IMG/VR virus record: IMGVR_UViG_3300021093_000051
Location: 1 to 64,000 of that record
DNA: 64,000 bases
Source: a virus
Strand: one strand, 5' to 3'
A program made the translations under genes and the position numbers. Shown piece by piece: positions 23,048 to 46,949 of this stretch. The notes under the pieces were generated by a model. It saw only the letters and a program-made list of their open reading frames with translations, was not told the origin of the DNA and ran no database searches. The first letter of the stretch is position 1, and the number at the start of each line of letters is the position of its first letter.

Positions 23048-25432
<2,385 letters not shown>

Positions 25433-40095: not shown

Positions 40096-40323
40096 ATGAA
40101 TCTGATACAAGGTGGAGACCAGCCTCAATTAAACATTAACTTAGCAGATGCTCCATACATGGAATGTGAAGAGTGTCAAGGAAAGATCTTTGAAGAAAAG
40201 ATGATGATTAAAAAAGTTTCAAGATTTATGACTGGCTCTGATCAAGACTCGATCGTGCCTATTCCAGTTATTTGTTGTGCAAAGTGTGGACATGTAAACA
40301 AACTATTTAAACCAAAAGTATGA
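40096..40323 (+). CDS. Zinc-ribbon protein (75 aa)
   Basis: Two Cys pairs, MECEECQGKIF and VICCAKCGHVNKLF, form a CxxC...CxxC zinc ribbon. The ATG at 40096 has an A-rich leader like other genes here; an in-frame GTG at 40054 would extend it by 14 residues into the dUTPase gene. It overlaps the polymerase start by 4 nt (ATGA). Small zinc ribbons can bind nucleic acid or polymerase; its place between dUTPase and polymerase suggests a replication link, otherwise unknown. Confidence 0.6.
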   Translation: MNLIQGGDQPQLNINLADAPYMECEECQGKIFEEKMMIKKVSRFMTGSDQDSIVPIPVICCAKCGHVNKLFKPKV

Positions 40324-41738
40324 TAATTGGTGCAGAAGTACTTAATGATAACACTCTAACCATCTCATATTATAATGAGAACGGAAAGATTGAATTTATT
40401 AAAAAAAGATTAGCTGATCACGAAATGTATAATTGGGTAGAATCGCAAACTCCGACTGCTACCAAAAATTGGAACGGCAAATACGTAAAACGTGGTCCAA
40501 CTCAAGGTCAATATGTAAATCAGTTCAGAGTTCAAGAGTTAATTCAAGAAAAATTAACAGCTGACGAGCTTGAACGAGTTTATAATTTTGATAACTTTCC
40601 CAAGAAAACTTATCTTGATATTGAGATCAAGTTGATCAATGACTCTTTTCCAGAACCAGACAAAGCTAGAATGCCAGTCGGGCTAATTTCATTCTGCAAT
40701 GAGGACAACGTGACCTACATTCTTTCTATCCTAAATTCTGATGAGCAGCCTGAAGGTCTTACTCAAGAACAGATTACTAAAATGGAAAAAGAAGTAAATG
40801 AATATTTTAGAAAGACCGTTCCTAAAAAACCAGAAGATGCTCGATTATTCAATCAAGAATTTAAGATAAAATATAAATTCTTTAAGAGCGAGGATGAGTT
40901 AATGGAGTTTTATTTCCATAAGATCATGCCTCATTTTAATTTTGTTACCGGATGGAATGTTACTGAGTTTGACTGGAAGTACTTGATGAATCGCGGTAAA
41001 AACTTGAAAATTGACATGATGCAAAACATGCCAACTCGATCAACTGTTTCTAAAATAAAGATCCCAACGCATTTAGGAGTTCTTGATTACATGCAAGTTT
41101 TTGAAAAAATGAAGCCGTACAAAGTAGTTGAAAACTATAAATTAGACTATATTGCAGACTTAGTATTAGGTACAGCTAAATTACACCATGATTATTCATC
41201 ATTCATGGAATTCCAAAAAGACACTTATCTTTTCACCATGTATAACGTGATTGACGTTATTCTAGTTAAATTAATCGAAGATAAGCTTGCTTTACTTGAT
41301 GTTGCTTTTGCGATGTCAAATGTTGCCCAAGTAGAAGTAAACAAAGTATTTAGTCCAGTATACATCGCTGAGATCCTAATGTGTCGTGAATTCTTAAACA
41401 AGAATCTCAAAATGATGAAGCTTCCTTGGGGTGAAGAAGTAGAAGACGGTACGTATGCAGGTGCTTATGTGAAGGATCCTACTCCAGGATATTATGGAGC
41501 AGTTGCCTGCTATGACTTTTCTTCAATGTATCCAAACATTCAGATTCAATTCAATATTTCTCCAGATACCTATCTTGGTAAGACTGATAAAATCAAACGC
41601 GATGGCACTGAGATTCACACTAAGAATAACACATTATTTTCAACTAAGACCGACTCGGTAGCTCGAACCATCCTTACTAGACTTTATGATGAGAGAATCA
41701 GAACTCAAGGAGAAATGAAAAAACTAAAAAGCTCATAA
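40320..41738 (+). CDS. 43: Family-B DNA polymerase, N-terminal part only (gp43-like)
   Basis: 472 residues matching the first half of T4 DNA polymerase (898 aa). Proofreading motifs are intact: Exo I Asp100/Glu102 in YLDIEI, Exo II in GWNVTEFDWKYL (Asp218), Exo III in YNVIDV (Asp312). Polymerase motif A is present (Asp399 in YDFSSMYPN). The frame ends after RLYDERIRTQGEMKKLKSS, before motif B (K-x-x-x-N-S-x-Y-G) and motif C (D-T-D), so this chain alone cannot polymerise. No frame in the window encodes the missing fingers/palm/thumb. The next gene starts in the stop (TAATG), so it is not a simple sequencing frameshift. A second gene elsewhere is likely, as in Aeromonas phages with split gene 43. 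No intein sequence is seen at the end. Confidence 0.9.
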   Translation: MIIGAEVLNDNTLTISYYNENGKIEFIKKRLADHEMYNWVESQTPTATKNWNGKYVKRGPTQGQYVNQFRVQELIQEKLTADELERVYNFDNFPKKTYLDIEIKLINDSFPEPDKARMPVGLISFCNEDNVTYILSILNSDEQPEGLTQEQITKMEKEVNEYFRKTVPKKPEDARLFNQEFKIKYKFFKSEDELMEFYFHKIMPHFNFVTGWNVTEFDWKYLMNRGKNLKIDMMQNMPTRSTVSKIKIPTHLGVLDYMQVFEKMKPYKVVENYKLDYIADLVLGTAKLHHDYSSFMEFQKDTYLFTMYNVIDVILVKLIEDKLALLDVAFAMSNVAQVEVNKVFSPVYIAEILMCREFLNKNLKMMKLPWGEEVEDGTYAGAYVKDPTPGYYGAVACYDFSSMYPNIQIQFNISPDTYLGKTDKIKRDGTEIHTKNNTLFSTKTDSVARTILTRLYDERIRTQGEMKKLKSS

Positions 41739-43543: not shown

Positions 43544-44443
43544 ATGGCAAAGTCAACAAATGACGCAATCAACGCTTTTAATAAATTCAATGATCTATTA
43601 GAGAAAAAAGTAAAATCCAAAGTCACCCTAATGGGATTTTCCGACATTGATGATTATATTCCTACCGGTAATTATCTCCTAAATGCTCAGATCTCAGGAT
43701 CAGTCTTTGGAGGATATCCAAATACCAGAAGCATTGGAATCGCTGGAGATTCTGGAGCAGGCAAAACGTTTCTTTGTTTAAACGCAGTACGAGAACTTCA
43801 AAAGAAAAACTATTTTGTTTTCTATATCGACACTGAGGGTGCAATCGATCGTTCTGACTATACTAAATTTGGCGTAGACTTAGAGAAATTAAAATACCTT
43901 CGTATGGGTCTAATTAGCGATGTTAAGTTCTTTATCAATGACTTTATTGAAACGATGAGAGAGAATCCAGGATTAAAAGCTGCTATTTTTGTTGATTCAG
44001 TTGGGATGCTTGATACTGATAAGAGCAAGAGAGATATGGATGCCGGTAAAAACGCATCTGACATGGGACTTCGTTCTAAAGAGATGAGATCTCTATTCAA
44101 ATCATTTACTCTTGAATTATCTAACTTAAAGGTTCCATTCATCTTCACAAACCACACTTACGCCTGCTTTCCAGGAGAACAGTTAATTATTACTGAAAAC
44201 GGAACCACTAGAATAATGGATTTAAAAATAGGAGATCTAGTTGATACTTTAGAAGGATTTAAACCAGTTGAAAATATTTTTACATATGATAATGCTAATC
44301 TTCTAGAAATAGAATTTGAAGATGGGACAATAGTTAAATGCACACCAAATCATAAATTCTTAGTAAGCGAAGACTGGGAAAATGAAGAATCTTGGGTAGA
44401 AGCAATGGATTTAATTGAAGGTTCTGAAATAACCTGTAAATAA
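43544..44443 (+). CDS. uvsX: UvsX recombinase N-terminal part fused to the N-half of a split intein
   Basis: 299 residues. Residues 1-207 are the N-terminal half of a T4 UvsX/RecA-type strand-exchange protein: Walker A GIAGDSGAGKT (68-75 core), Walker B AAIFVDSVG (Asp151), and the chain stops at FIFTNHTYA, the conserved NHTY just before DNA-binding loop L2. Residue 208 is Cys, and 208-299 are an intein N-half: block A CFPGEQLIITENGTTRIMDL, block B GTIVKCTPNHKFLV with the T-x-x-H motif. The frame ends in TAA at 44441. The partner with the C-half follows at 44461 in a different reading frame, so the active recombinase needs two proteins and protein trans-splicing. Confidence 0.92.
   Translation: MAKSTNDAINAFNKFNDLLEKKVKSKVTLMGFSDIDDYIPTGNYLLNAQISGSVFGGYPNTRSIGIAGDSGAGKTFLCLNAVRELQKKNYFVFYIDTEGAIDRSDYTKFGVDLEKLKYLRMGLISDVKFFINDFIETMRENPGLKAAIFVDSVGMLDTDKSKRDMDAGKNASDMGLRSKEMRSLFKSFTLELSNLKVPFIFTNHTYACFPGEQLIITENGTTRIMDLKIGDLVDTLEGFKPVENIFTYDNANLLEIEFEDGTIVKCTPNHKFLVSEDWENEESWVEAMDLIEGSEITCK
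44165..44440 (+). other. Split intein, N-terminal half
   Basis: 92 codons, from Cys208 of the upstream chain to the stop. It has intein blocks A and B and no homing-endonuclease domain. By hand count G+C is about 30 %, lower than the adjoining uvsX sequence, consistent with an inserted element. Confidence 0.9.
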
Positions 44444-44460
44444 AATAACATTTAAAAGAT

Positions 44461-44574
44461 ATGAAAAAGTTAAAAGTTAAATCAATTAAGAAAATCGAAT
44501 CAAGTAAAGTATATGATATTCAAGTAAAAGATGTACATCATTTTGTCTTAGATAACTCAGTAGTGACTCATAAT
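44461..44574 (+). other. Split intein, C-terminal half
   Basis: 38 codons ending His-Asn, with Ser as +1 residue. G+C by hand count is about 24 %, against about 47 % in the first 66 nt of the following extein, so the intein boundary is visible in composition. Confidence 0.9.
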
Positions 44575-45156
44575 TCAATGGATCAATATACTCCAAAGGG
44601 AATGTCTGGCGGCGGAGGTCCTGAATTTTCTGCCTCAATCATCTTAATGTTGAGTAAAGGTACGCTAAGAGACGAGGCAAAGACTACTACTGGAATCATC
44701 GTAAGATCCAAGACCAGAAAGAATCGTTTAGCTAAACCAATCGACATTGAATTCCACATCTCATTCCATAAAGGTATGAATCAATATGTTGGTCTTGAAC
44801 AATTCGTAAATTGGGAAAACTGTGGAGTCGGTCGAGGAAATAAACTTACTGAAAAAGAGTTTTCTAAATTAAAAGCAGATGAGCAATCTCTCTGTTCAGA
44901 GTTTGAGGTAGAAGGCGAAAAATTTTATTTTCTACCTAAAAAGCTTGGAAAAAATTACGTCATTCGACATAATGGTGACCTAGTACCAATAAAAGAATTT
45001 TTCTCAGCTAGATTATTTACACAAGAGGTTCTAATGGAACTTGATGAAAAAATAATTAAACCGACCTTTAAATTTCCAGAAACTCAAGACGAGATCGATC
45101 TATTGGAGACTAGTGAACTTAACGACCTAAATGACGATGATGACTCTACGTTCTGA
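44461..45156 (+). CDS. uvsX: C-half of split intein fused to UvsX C-terminal part
   Basis: 231 residues. Residues 1-38 are an intein C-half: block F KVYDIQVKDVHHFVL and block G NSVVTHN, ending in the His37-Asn38 pair needed for cleavage, followed by Ser39 as the first C-extein nucleophile. Residues 39-231 resume UvsX with MDQYTPKGMSGGGGPEFSAS (loop L2 and onward) and end in an acidic tail, NDLNDDDDSTF, as in T4 UvsX. Splicing would give 207 + 193 = 400 residues, close to T4 UvsX (391). The gap to the upstream gene is 17 nt and the frame differs, so read-through cannot rejoin them. Overlaps the next gene by 26 nt. Confidence 0.92.
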   Translation: MKKLKVKSIKKIESSKVYDIQVKDVHHFVLDNSVVTHNSMDQYTPKGMSGGGGPEFSASIILMLSKGTLRDEAKTTTGIIVRSKTRKNRLAKPIDIEFHISFHKGMNQYVGLEQFVNWENCGVGRGNKLTEKEFSKLKADEQSLCSEFEVEGEKFYFLPKKLGKNYVIRHNGDLVPIKEFFSARLFTQEVLMELDEKIIKPTFKFPETQDEIDLLETSELNDLNDDDDSTF

Positions 45157-45472
45157 TCTTCCAATAAAATACTATTTGAATCTATATAATGAGGAGGGAC
45201 TAAGCGACGAGTTTACCCTCCTTTTTGAGATCCTACAGTACATAATAAAAGTCGCAAATTCTAAAGAAAAATCAATTGAACTAAAGACTCTTAAGTTTTC
45301 TTCTAAATCCTTAAAATATGTTTTTGGTGACAAAATTAAGGACGAAACCTTTAAAACATTTTTAGTTAAATCTTTAAAAAGTATGATCGGTGACGAATAT
45401 CTCATGGCTGAAGGTGACTTCATCTACTTTACAAAAAAAGGATTAACCCATTTTTACTTAACGAATGATTGA
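45131..45472 (+). CDS. Hypothetical protein between uvsX and helicase (113 aa)
   Basis: No family recognised. Lys-rich and helical with a C-terminal YLMAEGDFIYFTKKGLTHFY that looks like the wing of a winged-helix domain. T4 has gene 40 (about 114 aa) at exactly this place between uvsX and 41, so it is a positional counterpart, but I cannot confirm sequence similarity. Starts at 45131, 45137 or 45140 are all possible. Overlaps uvsX-C by 26 nt and the helicase by 8 nt. Confidence 0.5.
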   Translation: MTMMTLRSDLPIKYYLNLYNEEGLSDEFTLLFEILQYIIKVANSKEKSIELKTLKFSSKSLKYVFGDKIKDETFKTFLVKSLKSMIGDEYLMAEGDFIYFTKKGLTHFYLTND

Positions 45473-46949
45473 TTTTACAGAAAACATTGACTCTCTTGAA
45501 AAGATGGTTTGGAATTTTATCTTAAGTTCCGAAAATGACATAAATGACTTGCGTCCATCTAATCATGATTCGTTAAGAAGAGAGGAGCTGATCACCATGA
45601 TGAAGCCCAGTTATTTCAATGAAGACGATCGTCAAGAATCATTTAAAGCGGCAGCTAAGTTTTTTAAAGAATACGAAAAGATTCCAAATCGAAAGGAACT
45701 AAAGAGCTACTTGGAAGTTAGCAATATAAGTCTAAATGACGATGAGTTTGATGAATTGTATGCAGTTAGCTTAACTGAATACAATTATGACTATCTCTAT
45801 AAATACGTTAGATCATTTATTCTCTTAAGAAACCTAAACCTAACAGTCTTTGACTTGTTAACCTATTTAAAGACTACTCCAATCGATCCAGGGAACATCG
45901 ATAAGATCTCTGAAAAGATTAGAAACGATATAAGTAATAAGTTAGCACTAAACTTTTCTAGTGCGGATACTGGCCTAAATTTCTTTAATCCTGAATCTCA
46001 CATCCAGATCTCTAAGACGGGCAGCCCGACTGGCTTTCCTTTCTTAGATAAGGTACAGGGCGGTGGCTGGAATTCAAAAGCGCTAGTCGTTTTTCAAGGT
46101 CGACCTAAAGTCGGTAAGTCAATGGTTCTTGGAAATATTGCAGCCCGATCATTCTTAACCGGCAATGCGACCGGTTTAGTGACAGTTGAGTTAGCTGACC
46201 GCGCCTATATGAAACGAATCGGCTCAAATATTCTAAATATTAAATCTGAAGATTATTCTAGGATCACAGATGAGCGAGCTGCTCAACTGATTCAAAGCAA
46301 GATTCAAGAACTTAAGGACTCTGGCCAAACGGTCGGCGAATTAATTGTAAAGGAATTTCCGACCGGCGGTGCTACTGCCATTGACATTGAAAACTACTTT
46401 GTTCGACTTGAACAAAAAATGAATAAGAAATTTAAAGTGATTGTAGTAGATTACTTAAATCTCCTAAAACCAATCAATTCTCAAAATGGTCTATACGAAA
46501 AGATTAAAGCCATCTCTGAGGAACTTAGAGGAGTGGCAATGAGAAATGAATGGTGTATCGTTAGTGCAACTCAAATTCGTAGAGAAGATATTGATAACTT
46601 TGACCTAGGCATGGATTCAGTTGCTGAATCATTTGGTCTCATTCATACGGTTGACTCTCTATTTGGGCTTATGCGAAGTCCGCTTGAGAGTAGAATGAAG
46701 ATTAAGGTGATTGCTAATCGAGATAACGGCTATGAAGAGAGCTATAAGTTCTATACGATGCACAAAGACTATTTTAGGTTATCTGAGGAAGTCGGTCAAA
46801 ACAGTGAATTCTATAGCGACGATGAGGAAGTAAGCCGAATGGCCGATGAATTGAGATCAGAGTATTCTGAGATAAATAAAGCATCAGCTGAACCCGTGTC
46901 AAGCATTCCAATTGAAGACGATTATGACGCTCTCTTCAATTCAATATAA
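45465..46949 (+). CDS. 41: Replicative DNA helicase, DnaB/T4 gp41 family
   Basis: 494 residues (T4 gp41 has 475). The N-terminal helical domain covers about 1-150, and the RecA-like motor has Walker A VFQGRPKVGKSMVLGN and Walker B FKVIVVDYLNLLKP, then the VSATQIRRED motif 3 region and IANRDNGYEESYKF. The hexamer moves 5'-3' on the lagging-strand template. The last residues, EDDYDALFNSI, closely resemble the tail of the phage gp32 (DEYDSLFSNL). Order uvsX-(40-like)-41 is as in T4. The primase gp61 and loader gp59 were not recognised in the window. Confidence 0.9.
   Translation: MIDFTENIDSLEKMVWNFILSSENDINDLRPSNHDSLRREELITMMKPSYFNEDDRQESFKAAAKFFKEYEKIPNRKELKSYLEVSNISLNDDEFDELYAVSLTEYNYDYLYKYVRSFILLRNLNLTVFDLLTYLKTTPIDPGNIDKISEKIRNDISNKLALNFSSADTGLNFFNPESHIQISKTGSPTGFPFLDKVQGGGWNSKALVVFQGRPKVGKSMVLGNIAARSFLTGNATGLVTVELADRAYMKRIGSNILNIKSEDYSRITDERAAQLIQSKIQELKDSGQTVGELIVKEFPTGGATAIDIENYFVRLEQKMNKKFKVIVVDYLNLLKPINSQNGLYEKIKAISEELRGVAMRNEWCIVSATQIRREDIDNFDLGMDSVAESFGLIHTVDSLFGLMRSPLESRMKIKVIANRDNGYEESYKFYTMHKDYFRLSEEVGQNSEFYSDDEEVSRMADELRSEYSEINKASAEPVSSIPIEDDYDALFNSI

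What the first reader, a model, noticed from the sequence alone, without database searches (positions are those of the whole stretch)
43544..45156. UvsX recombinase gene broken into two genes by a naturally split intein
The upstream gene ends in an intein N-half starting at Cys208 (blocks A and B, T-x-x-H), and the downstream gene begins with an intein C-half ending His-Asn before Ser39. The two frames differ and are separated by a stop and 17 nt, so only protein trans-splicing can restore a 400-residue UvsX. The break lies after NHTY, next to DNA-binding loop L2, where a defect would abolish strand exchange. The intein parts are about 30 % and 24 % G+C by hand count, against about 47 % in the first 66 nt of the C-extein. 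Split inteins in phage-type recombination and replication genes have been described from environmental sequence, so the class is known; the combination with this phage may be new. A split intein could also gate recombinase activity.
Basis: partly seen in the sequence, partly recalled or inferred. Interest (0 to 1): 0.92.

Follow-up and report, generated by a model that had tools for sequence, protein, structure and literature searches.

The report
Split intein in phage recombinase gene
An uncultured phage makes its DNA-recombination protein UvsX from two separate genes that must be joined by a self-removing split intein, and next to the break lies a short fossil of the DNA-cutting gene that once helped this element spread; the class is known, this one is a new and well-documented member.

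Summary
UvsX residues 1-207 plus a 92-aa intein N-half (43544-44443), a TAA stop and 17 nt are followed in another frame by a 38-aa intein C-half plus UvsX residues 208-400 (44461-45156). Both halves pass NCBI's intein splice-region models. Relatives have intact, intein-free uvsX joined exactly at the predicted junction, including two pairs 99.4-99.6% identical with and without the intein. A second contig repeats the junction, and no other uvsX lies in the 74.6-kb record. Trans-splicing is the best explanation (not shown experimentally). The window's spacer still reads, in that gene's frame, NKITFKRYEKVKS* against NKIKFKRYENVKS* in a relative. So this is a 'fractured gene' that has lost its endonuclease. 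Split uvsX inteins also sit mostly unrecognised in deposited T4-like phages (HY03, TG1, Pm5461) at a neighbouring site, where the endonuclease gene often starts in an I-TevI-like hairpin. Verdict: real; new member of a known kind (naturally split inteins of fractured genes), interesting mainly as an evolutionary series.

The parts
43544..44443 (+). Upstream gene: UvsX N-extein (207 aa) + intein N-half (92 aa), TAA stop 44441-44443
   Evidence: ORF; PF00154 RecA E 1.2e-13 and intein/Hint models; phrog_97 UvsX-like recombinase E 1.7e-41
43544..44164 (+). N-extein, UvsX residues 1-207 (...FIFTNHTYA)
   Evidence: 99.5% identical to intein-free uvsX of L005/L007/L009/L010, joined there without gap to the C-extein
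44165..44440 (+). Intein N-half, Cys1 (44165-44167), block B TPNH (44342-44353)
   Evidence: TIGR01445 32.0 bits, cut-off 24.5; best solved relative by sequence gp41-1 intein 6qaz, E 9.8e-7; dN/dS 0.13 to L003
44444..44460 (+). 17-nt spacer between stop and start: remnant of the 3' end of the deleted endonuclease gene
   Evidence: 13/17 identical in register to the endonuclease tail of L003; 135 of 100,000 shuffles reach this
44439..44480 (+). Fossil endonuclease C-terminus in its own frame, NKITFKRYEKVKS*, overlapping the start of the intein C-half
   Evidence: L003 endonuclease ends NKIKFKRYENVKS*; 8-nt AAATAAAA at both deletion ends in L003, positions 2914 and 3978
44461..45156 (+). Downstream gene: intein C-half (38 aa) + UvsX C-extein (193 aa)
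   Evidence: ORF; TIGR01443 intein_Cterm 26.3 bits, cut-off 15.6; phrog_18112 'recombinase' E 1.3e-10
44461..44574 (+). Intein C-half, ends ...VVTHN (His-Asn 44569-44574)
   Evidence: splice residues invariant in split relatives; dN/dS 0.05 to L003
44575..45153 (+). C-extein, UvsX residues 208-400, +1 nucleophile Ser (44575-44577)
   Evidence: 98.4% identical to the intein-free allele L005/L007, which has the same Ser at the junction

Best explanation
uvsX of this uncultured, T4-like phage is a fractured gene. Two separately translated precursors (UvsX 1-207 + intein-N; intein-C + UvsX 208-400) associate through the intein halves and splice in trans, with Cys1 and Ser+1 as nucleophiles and Asn38 cyclising, giving a seamless 400-aa UvsX. 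The element is a former mobile split intein: ancestors carried a free-standing DUF7487/PD-(D/E)xK homing endonuclease gene between the halves that cut intein-free uvsX and spread the insertion. In this phage that gene was deleted, perhaps between 8-nt repeats, leaving a 17-nt remnant and an immobile, still-required split intein. Shown here: gene anatomy, splice motifs, empty-site alleles, endonuclease-bearing relatives, remnant. Inferred: actual splicing, cleavage by the endonuclease, order and mechanism of the deletion.
For: Anatomy and frames. Intein models above cut-off on both halves. Most related loci carry uvsX with exteins joined without gap at A207|S. Near-identical pairs with and without the intein: L003/L062 99.4%, L019/L102 99.6% of extein nucleotides. 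Same split with an intervening 350-352-aa ORF in L003/L004, L019 and L036; it is DUF7487, E 2e-38 to 2e-40, with conserved PD...ExK residues, PHROG 'homing endonuclease' E 2.5e-16. That family is absent from the window's record. Remnant peptide and 8-nt repeats. Only one uvsX in the record. L002 repeats the junction without a mismatch over 4886 nt. Purifying selection on both halves, dN/dS 0.13 and 0.05. Synonymous codons differ less in the intein than in the exteins (33 of 105 against 129 of 284, p 0.015), as expected if it arrived after the exteins diverged.
Against: No splicing was shown. The record is a 74.6-kb fragment of a genome whose relatives reach 270 kb, so another uvsX elsewhere is not excluded. 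L002 is 100% identical and may be the same virus, so the endonuclease-less junction has no divergent replicate. The remnant is short and AT-rich; its last part overlaps the intein-C start and is constrained anyway. AT-richness can also lower synonymous divergence in the intein. The endonuclease fold match is weak (no hit at E <= 0.001).
Confidence: 0.88

Rival explanations
1. The two polypeptides work as a two-chain UvsX without splicing, the intein halves being dead leftovers (as in the genes-in-pieces ribonucleotide reductase created by a homing endonuclease insertion).
For: Genes-in-pieces ribonucleotide reductase exists in a phage (Friedrich 2007, cited in PMC10448857). DNA polymerase B of this phage group is split in two genes with no intein seen.
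Against: All splice residues are kept and dN/dS is 0.05-0.13. The break lies inside DNA-binding loop L2, so retained intein tails on both chains would sit in the DNA-binding centre.
Confidence: 0.05
2. A contiguous intein recently broken by a frameshift/stop or by assembly error.
For: Only a stop and 17 nt separate the halves; frames differ.
Against: The split point is the same in relatives that have a whole gene between the halves. The intein-C has its own ATG. L002 repeats the junction. The spacer matches an endonuclease tail, not intein linker.
Confidence: 0.04
3. An inactive pseudogene pair in a defective or UvsX-independent phage.
For: The genome is a fragment; UvsX loss reduces rather than abolishes T4 growth (own knowledge).
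Against: Exteins are 98-99.5% identical to intact alleles and their dN/dS is 0.014 against L003. The neighbouring replication genes are open.
Confidence: 0.03

Closest known systems
Fractured genes with split inteins and a free-standing endonuclease gene (Dassa et al. 2009, gkp095; full text not held, known through citing papers PMC7090010 and PMC10448857 and my own knowledge)
   Same: Conserved phage-type gene broken by a typically split intein; close relatives keep an endonuclease gene between the halves.
   Different: In the window the endonuclease gene is gone and only its 3' tail remains; I could not check whether uvsX is among the 2009 loci.
gp41-1 split intein (PDB 6qaz)
   Same: Best solved relative of the intein N-half by sequence, E 9.8e-7; typical split, N-half about 100 aa and C-half about 40 aa (PMC11923092).
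   Different: Sits in the gp41 helicase; the window's phage has an intact DnaB/gp41-type helicase gene (45465-46949).
Split uvsX of deposited T4-like phages: Escherichia phage HY03, Yersinia TG1, Proteus Pm5461, Enterobacter EnC07, Shewanella Thanatos-1, Vibrio vB_VmeM-32
   Same: uvsX in two genes with intein-N and intein-C tails and a gene between, mostly annotated homing endonuclease.
   Different: Insertion after ...GG, about 12 residues further on; different (GIY-YIG-type) endonuclease, still present; of those read, only VmeM-32's record notes a Hint domain.
Aes123 PolB1 split intein of T4-like Aeromonas phages (PMC11923092)
   Same: Naturally split intein in a T4-like replication gene, halves 120 and 39 aa.
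   Different: Different extein (DNA polymerase), cysteine-less.
Cyanobacterial DnaE split inteins (Npu DnaE)
   Same: Split intein without an endonuclease gene, obligate trans-splicing; C-half weakly similar.
   Different: Host genes lie far apart there (own knowledge); here they are adjacent, with an endonuclease remnant between.

Membership tests
Naturally split intein | N-half with Cys/Ser1 and TxxH at the end of one ORF; C-half with HN before Ser/Thr/Cys+1 at the start of another | tested here: met
   Cys1, TPNH, THN|S; TIGR01445 and TIGR01443 above cut-off
Naturally split intein | Exteins together make one known protein, with an intact intein-free allele | tested here: met
   Gapless joined alleles in most related loci
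Naturally split intein | Trans-splicing activity | not testable with these tools
   Needs co-expression of the two genes
Fractured gene (Dassa type) | Free-standing endonuclease gene between the intein halves | tested here: not met
   Only 17 nt between the halves; family absent from the record. Met in the closest split relatives L003, L004, L019, L036; remnant present in the window
Mobile (homing) intein | Presence/absence between near-identical alleles | tested here: met
   L003/L062 and L019/L102, i.e. for the endonuclease-bearing relatives; the window's own nearest empty allele is 87.2% identical
Mobile (homing) intein | Active endonuclease cutting the empty site | not testable with these tools
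   Nuclease residues conserved in relatives; fold match weak; no endonuclease in the window
UvsX/RecA recombinase | RecA-type ATPase core over the joined exteins | tested here: met
   Intein-free homologue aligns with phage UvsX 9gbg (E 1.4e-38), 3io5 and RecA over residues 33-285
I-TevI-like regulation of the endonuclease gene (relatives only) | Hairpin over the start region and a late promoter in it | tested here: inconclusive
   Hairpin z about -5 to -7 in L003, L036, L216, L317, L157, L225, weaker in HY03, TG1, EnC07; none in L019, Thanatos-1. Exact TATAAATA only in TG1, PspYZU05 and L305; motif not enriched in the window

The most novel reading that the evidence does not exclude
The split intein outlived its endonuclease because it became useful: splitting UvsX inside its DNA-binding loop makes active recombinase depend on co-expression of two genes, or on a signal such as ssDNA, so splicing times recombination-dependent replication, as reported for the RadA intein.
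Probability: 0.08. Interest if true: 0.8.

Novelty: new member of a known kind. Interest (0 to 1): 0.5.

Why it matters
It catches a selfish split intein after loss of its endonuclease, with the fossil still readable. Relatives supply other stages at the same gene: empty sites, split with a separate endonuclease, endonuclease fused to the intein C-half, and decayed endonucleases. It shows uvsX as a repeated target of split inteins, also in deposited T4-like phages whose records mostly do not say so, which makes splicing and homing in a recombinase gene testable in the laboratory. It also offers new typically split inteins for protein joining.

Tried and rejected
TnpB inside a split intein (L316) looked like an RNA-guided homing intein. 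No match of 10 nt or more links the region around its end to the insertion junction, and an endonuclease-like tail (IIEVKSKYF...) follows TnpB, so I read it as an insertion into the old endonuclease gene. Lak-B first looked like the same site; alignment shows a different one, and its TAG codons must be read as Gln. T4-type late promoters in the window: TATAAATA is depleted, not enriched. Structure: the endonuclease model (mean pLDDT 84) gave no significant PDB match, best hits PD-(D/E)xK nucleases at E 7e-3; the N-gene model is of low confidence (pLDDT 62) and was not searched. Rfam found nothing in three loci. Papers: none in the held library has both 'split intein' and 'uvsX', but Dassa 2009 and Carvajal-Vallejos 2012 are not held, so priority cannot be judged.

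Full report
Observation. The stretch 43544-45156 holds two adjacent ORFs on the + strand in different frames. The first encodes 207 residues of a UvsX/RecA-type recombinase followed by 92 residues of intein; the second 38 residues of intein followed by 193 residues of UvsX. A TAA stop and 17 nt lie between them. Both intein parts pass NCBI's curated cut-offs for splice regions; Pfam's intein and Hint models match below their cut-offs, as expected for halves. The 400-residue sum equals the intact protein of relatives.

Empty sites. Two scans of viral contigs, with the C gene and with the N-extein, returned 80 loci each. In most of them the exteins are joined without any gap exactly where the intein would splice; the nearest by protein sequence (L005, L007) is 99.5% and 98.4% identical in the two exteins. 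At the nucleotide level the window's nearest empty allele is only 87.2% identical, but two endonuclease-bearing relatives have almost identical empty partners: L003 against L062, 99.4%, and L019 against L102, 99.6%. The insertion is thus a recent, removable addition in those lineages, and its exact splice product is a natural protein.

Reality of the junction. Contig L002, under another metagenome number, is 100% identical to the window over 4886 nt and covers the stop, spacer and restart; it may be the same virus, so it argues against an assembly error rather than giving a divergent replicate. The split point is the same in L003, L004, L019 and L036. No other uvsX is in the 74.6-kb record, which is a fragment.

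The missing endonuclease. In L003, L004, L019 and L036 a 350-352-aa ORF lies between the halves; its 3' end overlaps the start of the intein C-half. It belongs to Pfam DUF7487 (E 2e-38 to 2e-40), matches a PHROG named homing endonuclease and keeps residues of a PD-(D/E)xK nuclease. The window's record has no member of this family. But its 17-nt spacer is 13/17 identical, in register, to the end of the L003 endonuclease gene (135 of 100,000 shuffles reach this), and the endonuclease frame reads NKITFKRYEKVKS* against NKIKFKRYENVKS*. In L003 the octamer AAATAAAA occurs at the end of the intein N-half and again in the endonuclease tail, at the two places where the window's deletion would have ended. 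I infer deletion of the endonuclease gene, possibly by recombination between these repeats.

Selection and age. Against L003, dN/dS is 0.13 in the intein N-half and 0.05 in the C-half, 0.014 in the exteins, so the intein has been kept functional for most of the divergence. Codons for unchanged residues differ in 33 of 105 cases in the intein and 129 of 284 in the exteins (p 0.015); this suggests that the intein is younger than the split of the exteins, with the caution that AT-rich sequence limits synonymous change.

Place in the protein. The alignment of the intein-free homologue to RecA puts the site within loop L2, four residues past the conserved Asn of TNH. The L2 limits in E. coli RecA are from my own knowledge.

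Translation of the second gene. None of 31 genes checked in the window has a Shine-Dalgarno-like motif; upstream sequences are A-rich, as is that of the C gene. The only relative found in cellular genomes, a contig carrying a uvsX C-part 75% identical, is in a Bacteroidetes MAG, so a Bacteroidota host is plausible.

Wider picture. Scans with the intein halves and reading of the loci show other states in more distant phages: endonuclease fused to the intein C-half (L216), an independent split without endonuclease and with a second, contiguous intein in the same gene (L314), a 97-aa ORF resembling a truncated endonuclease (L317), and a TnpB gene next to an endonuclease tail (L316). At a second site about 12 residues further on, split inteins occur in Lak-B phages, in L305-L312 and in deposited T4-like phages including HY03, TG1, Pm5461, EnC07 and Thanatos-1. 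In many of these the endonuclease gene begins in a strong predicted hairpin, in TG1 with the exact late-promoter motif TATAAATA in it. This resembles the arrangement described for I-TevI and other T4 endonucleases (PMC2988022), but hairpins are absent in some loci and there are no transcript data.

Verdict. A real, very probably working split intein in uvsX. By anatomy it is a fractured gene that has lost the endonuclease that defines that class; by mechanism it is an ordinary naturally split intein. New member of a known kind. The evolutionary series and the laboratory-accessible relatives give it moderate interest.

Noticed in passing
window 40320-41738: DNA polymerase B is truncated to its N-terminal 472 aa; in six relatives the C-terminal part is a separate gene tens of kb or more away, with no intein seen. 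The C part is not in the window's record.
   Followed up: partly
L216 4353-5297 and 5354-7288: Distant uvsX with the same insertion site in which the endonuclease is fused in frame to the intein C-half and C-extein (644 aa), so trans-splicing would release the endonuclease.
   Followed up: partly
L314 2616-3512 and 3539-4645: Independent split uvsX intein without endonuclease (genes about 26 nt apart) plus a contiguous mini-intein at the second site in the same C gene.
   Followed up: partly
L316 2536-3780: A TnpB gene (PF07282 E 1.9e-21) lies between split intein halves, followed by an endonuclease-like tail; probably an insertion into the endonuclease gene.
   Followed up: partly
L317 2408-4705: uvsX apparently in three pieces: an intein C-part before the Walker A motif, a second split intein in loop L2, and a 97-aa ORF that looks like a truncated endonuclease between its halves.
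   Followed up: no
L157 4950-8030 (Prevotella phage Lak-B2): Split uvsX intein at the second site in a TAG-recoded megaphage, with an ORF of no recognised family between the halves.
   Followed up: partly
L319, L320, L322, L324-L328: Split uvsX inteins in deposited T4-like phages annotated mostly as two recombinase genes; hairpins over the endonuclease start in several, with TATAAATA in TG1 and PspYZU05.
   Followed up: partly
L312 3788-3953: Split uvsX intein at the second site whose 165-nt spacer reads as a possible endonuclease tail (NERIEAIKRLRNFKVFIVWESE); a likely second case of endonuclease loss.
   Followed up: partly
L225 3552-6897: Ribonucleotide reductase gene split by an intein with a 358-aa ORF between the halves and a strong hairpin at its start.
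   Followed up: partly
L321 186-2156 (Salicola phage SCTP-2): One uvsX ORF that appears to carry two contiguous inteins, at Walker A and at the second site; annotated hypothetical.
   Followed up: no
window 23807-25432: The phage encodes a GroEL chaperonin (phrog_5725, E 1e-155).
   Followed up: no
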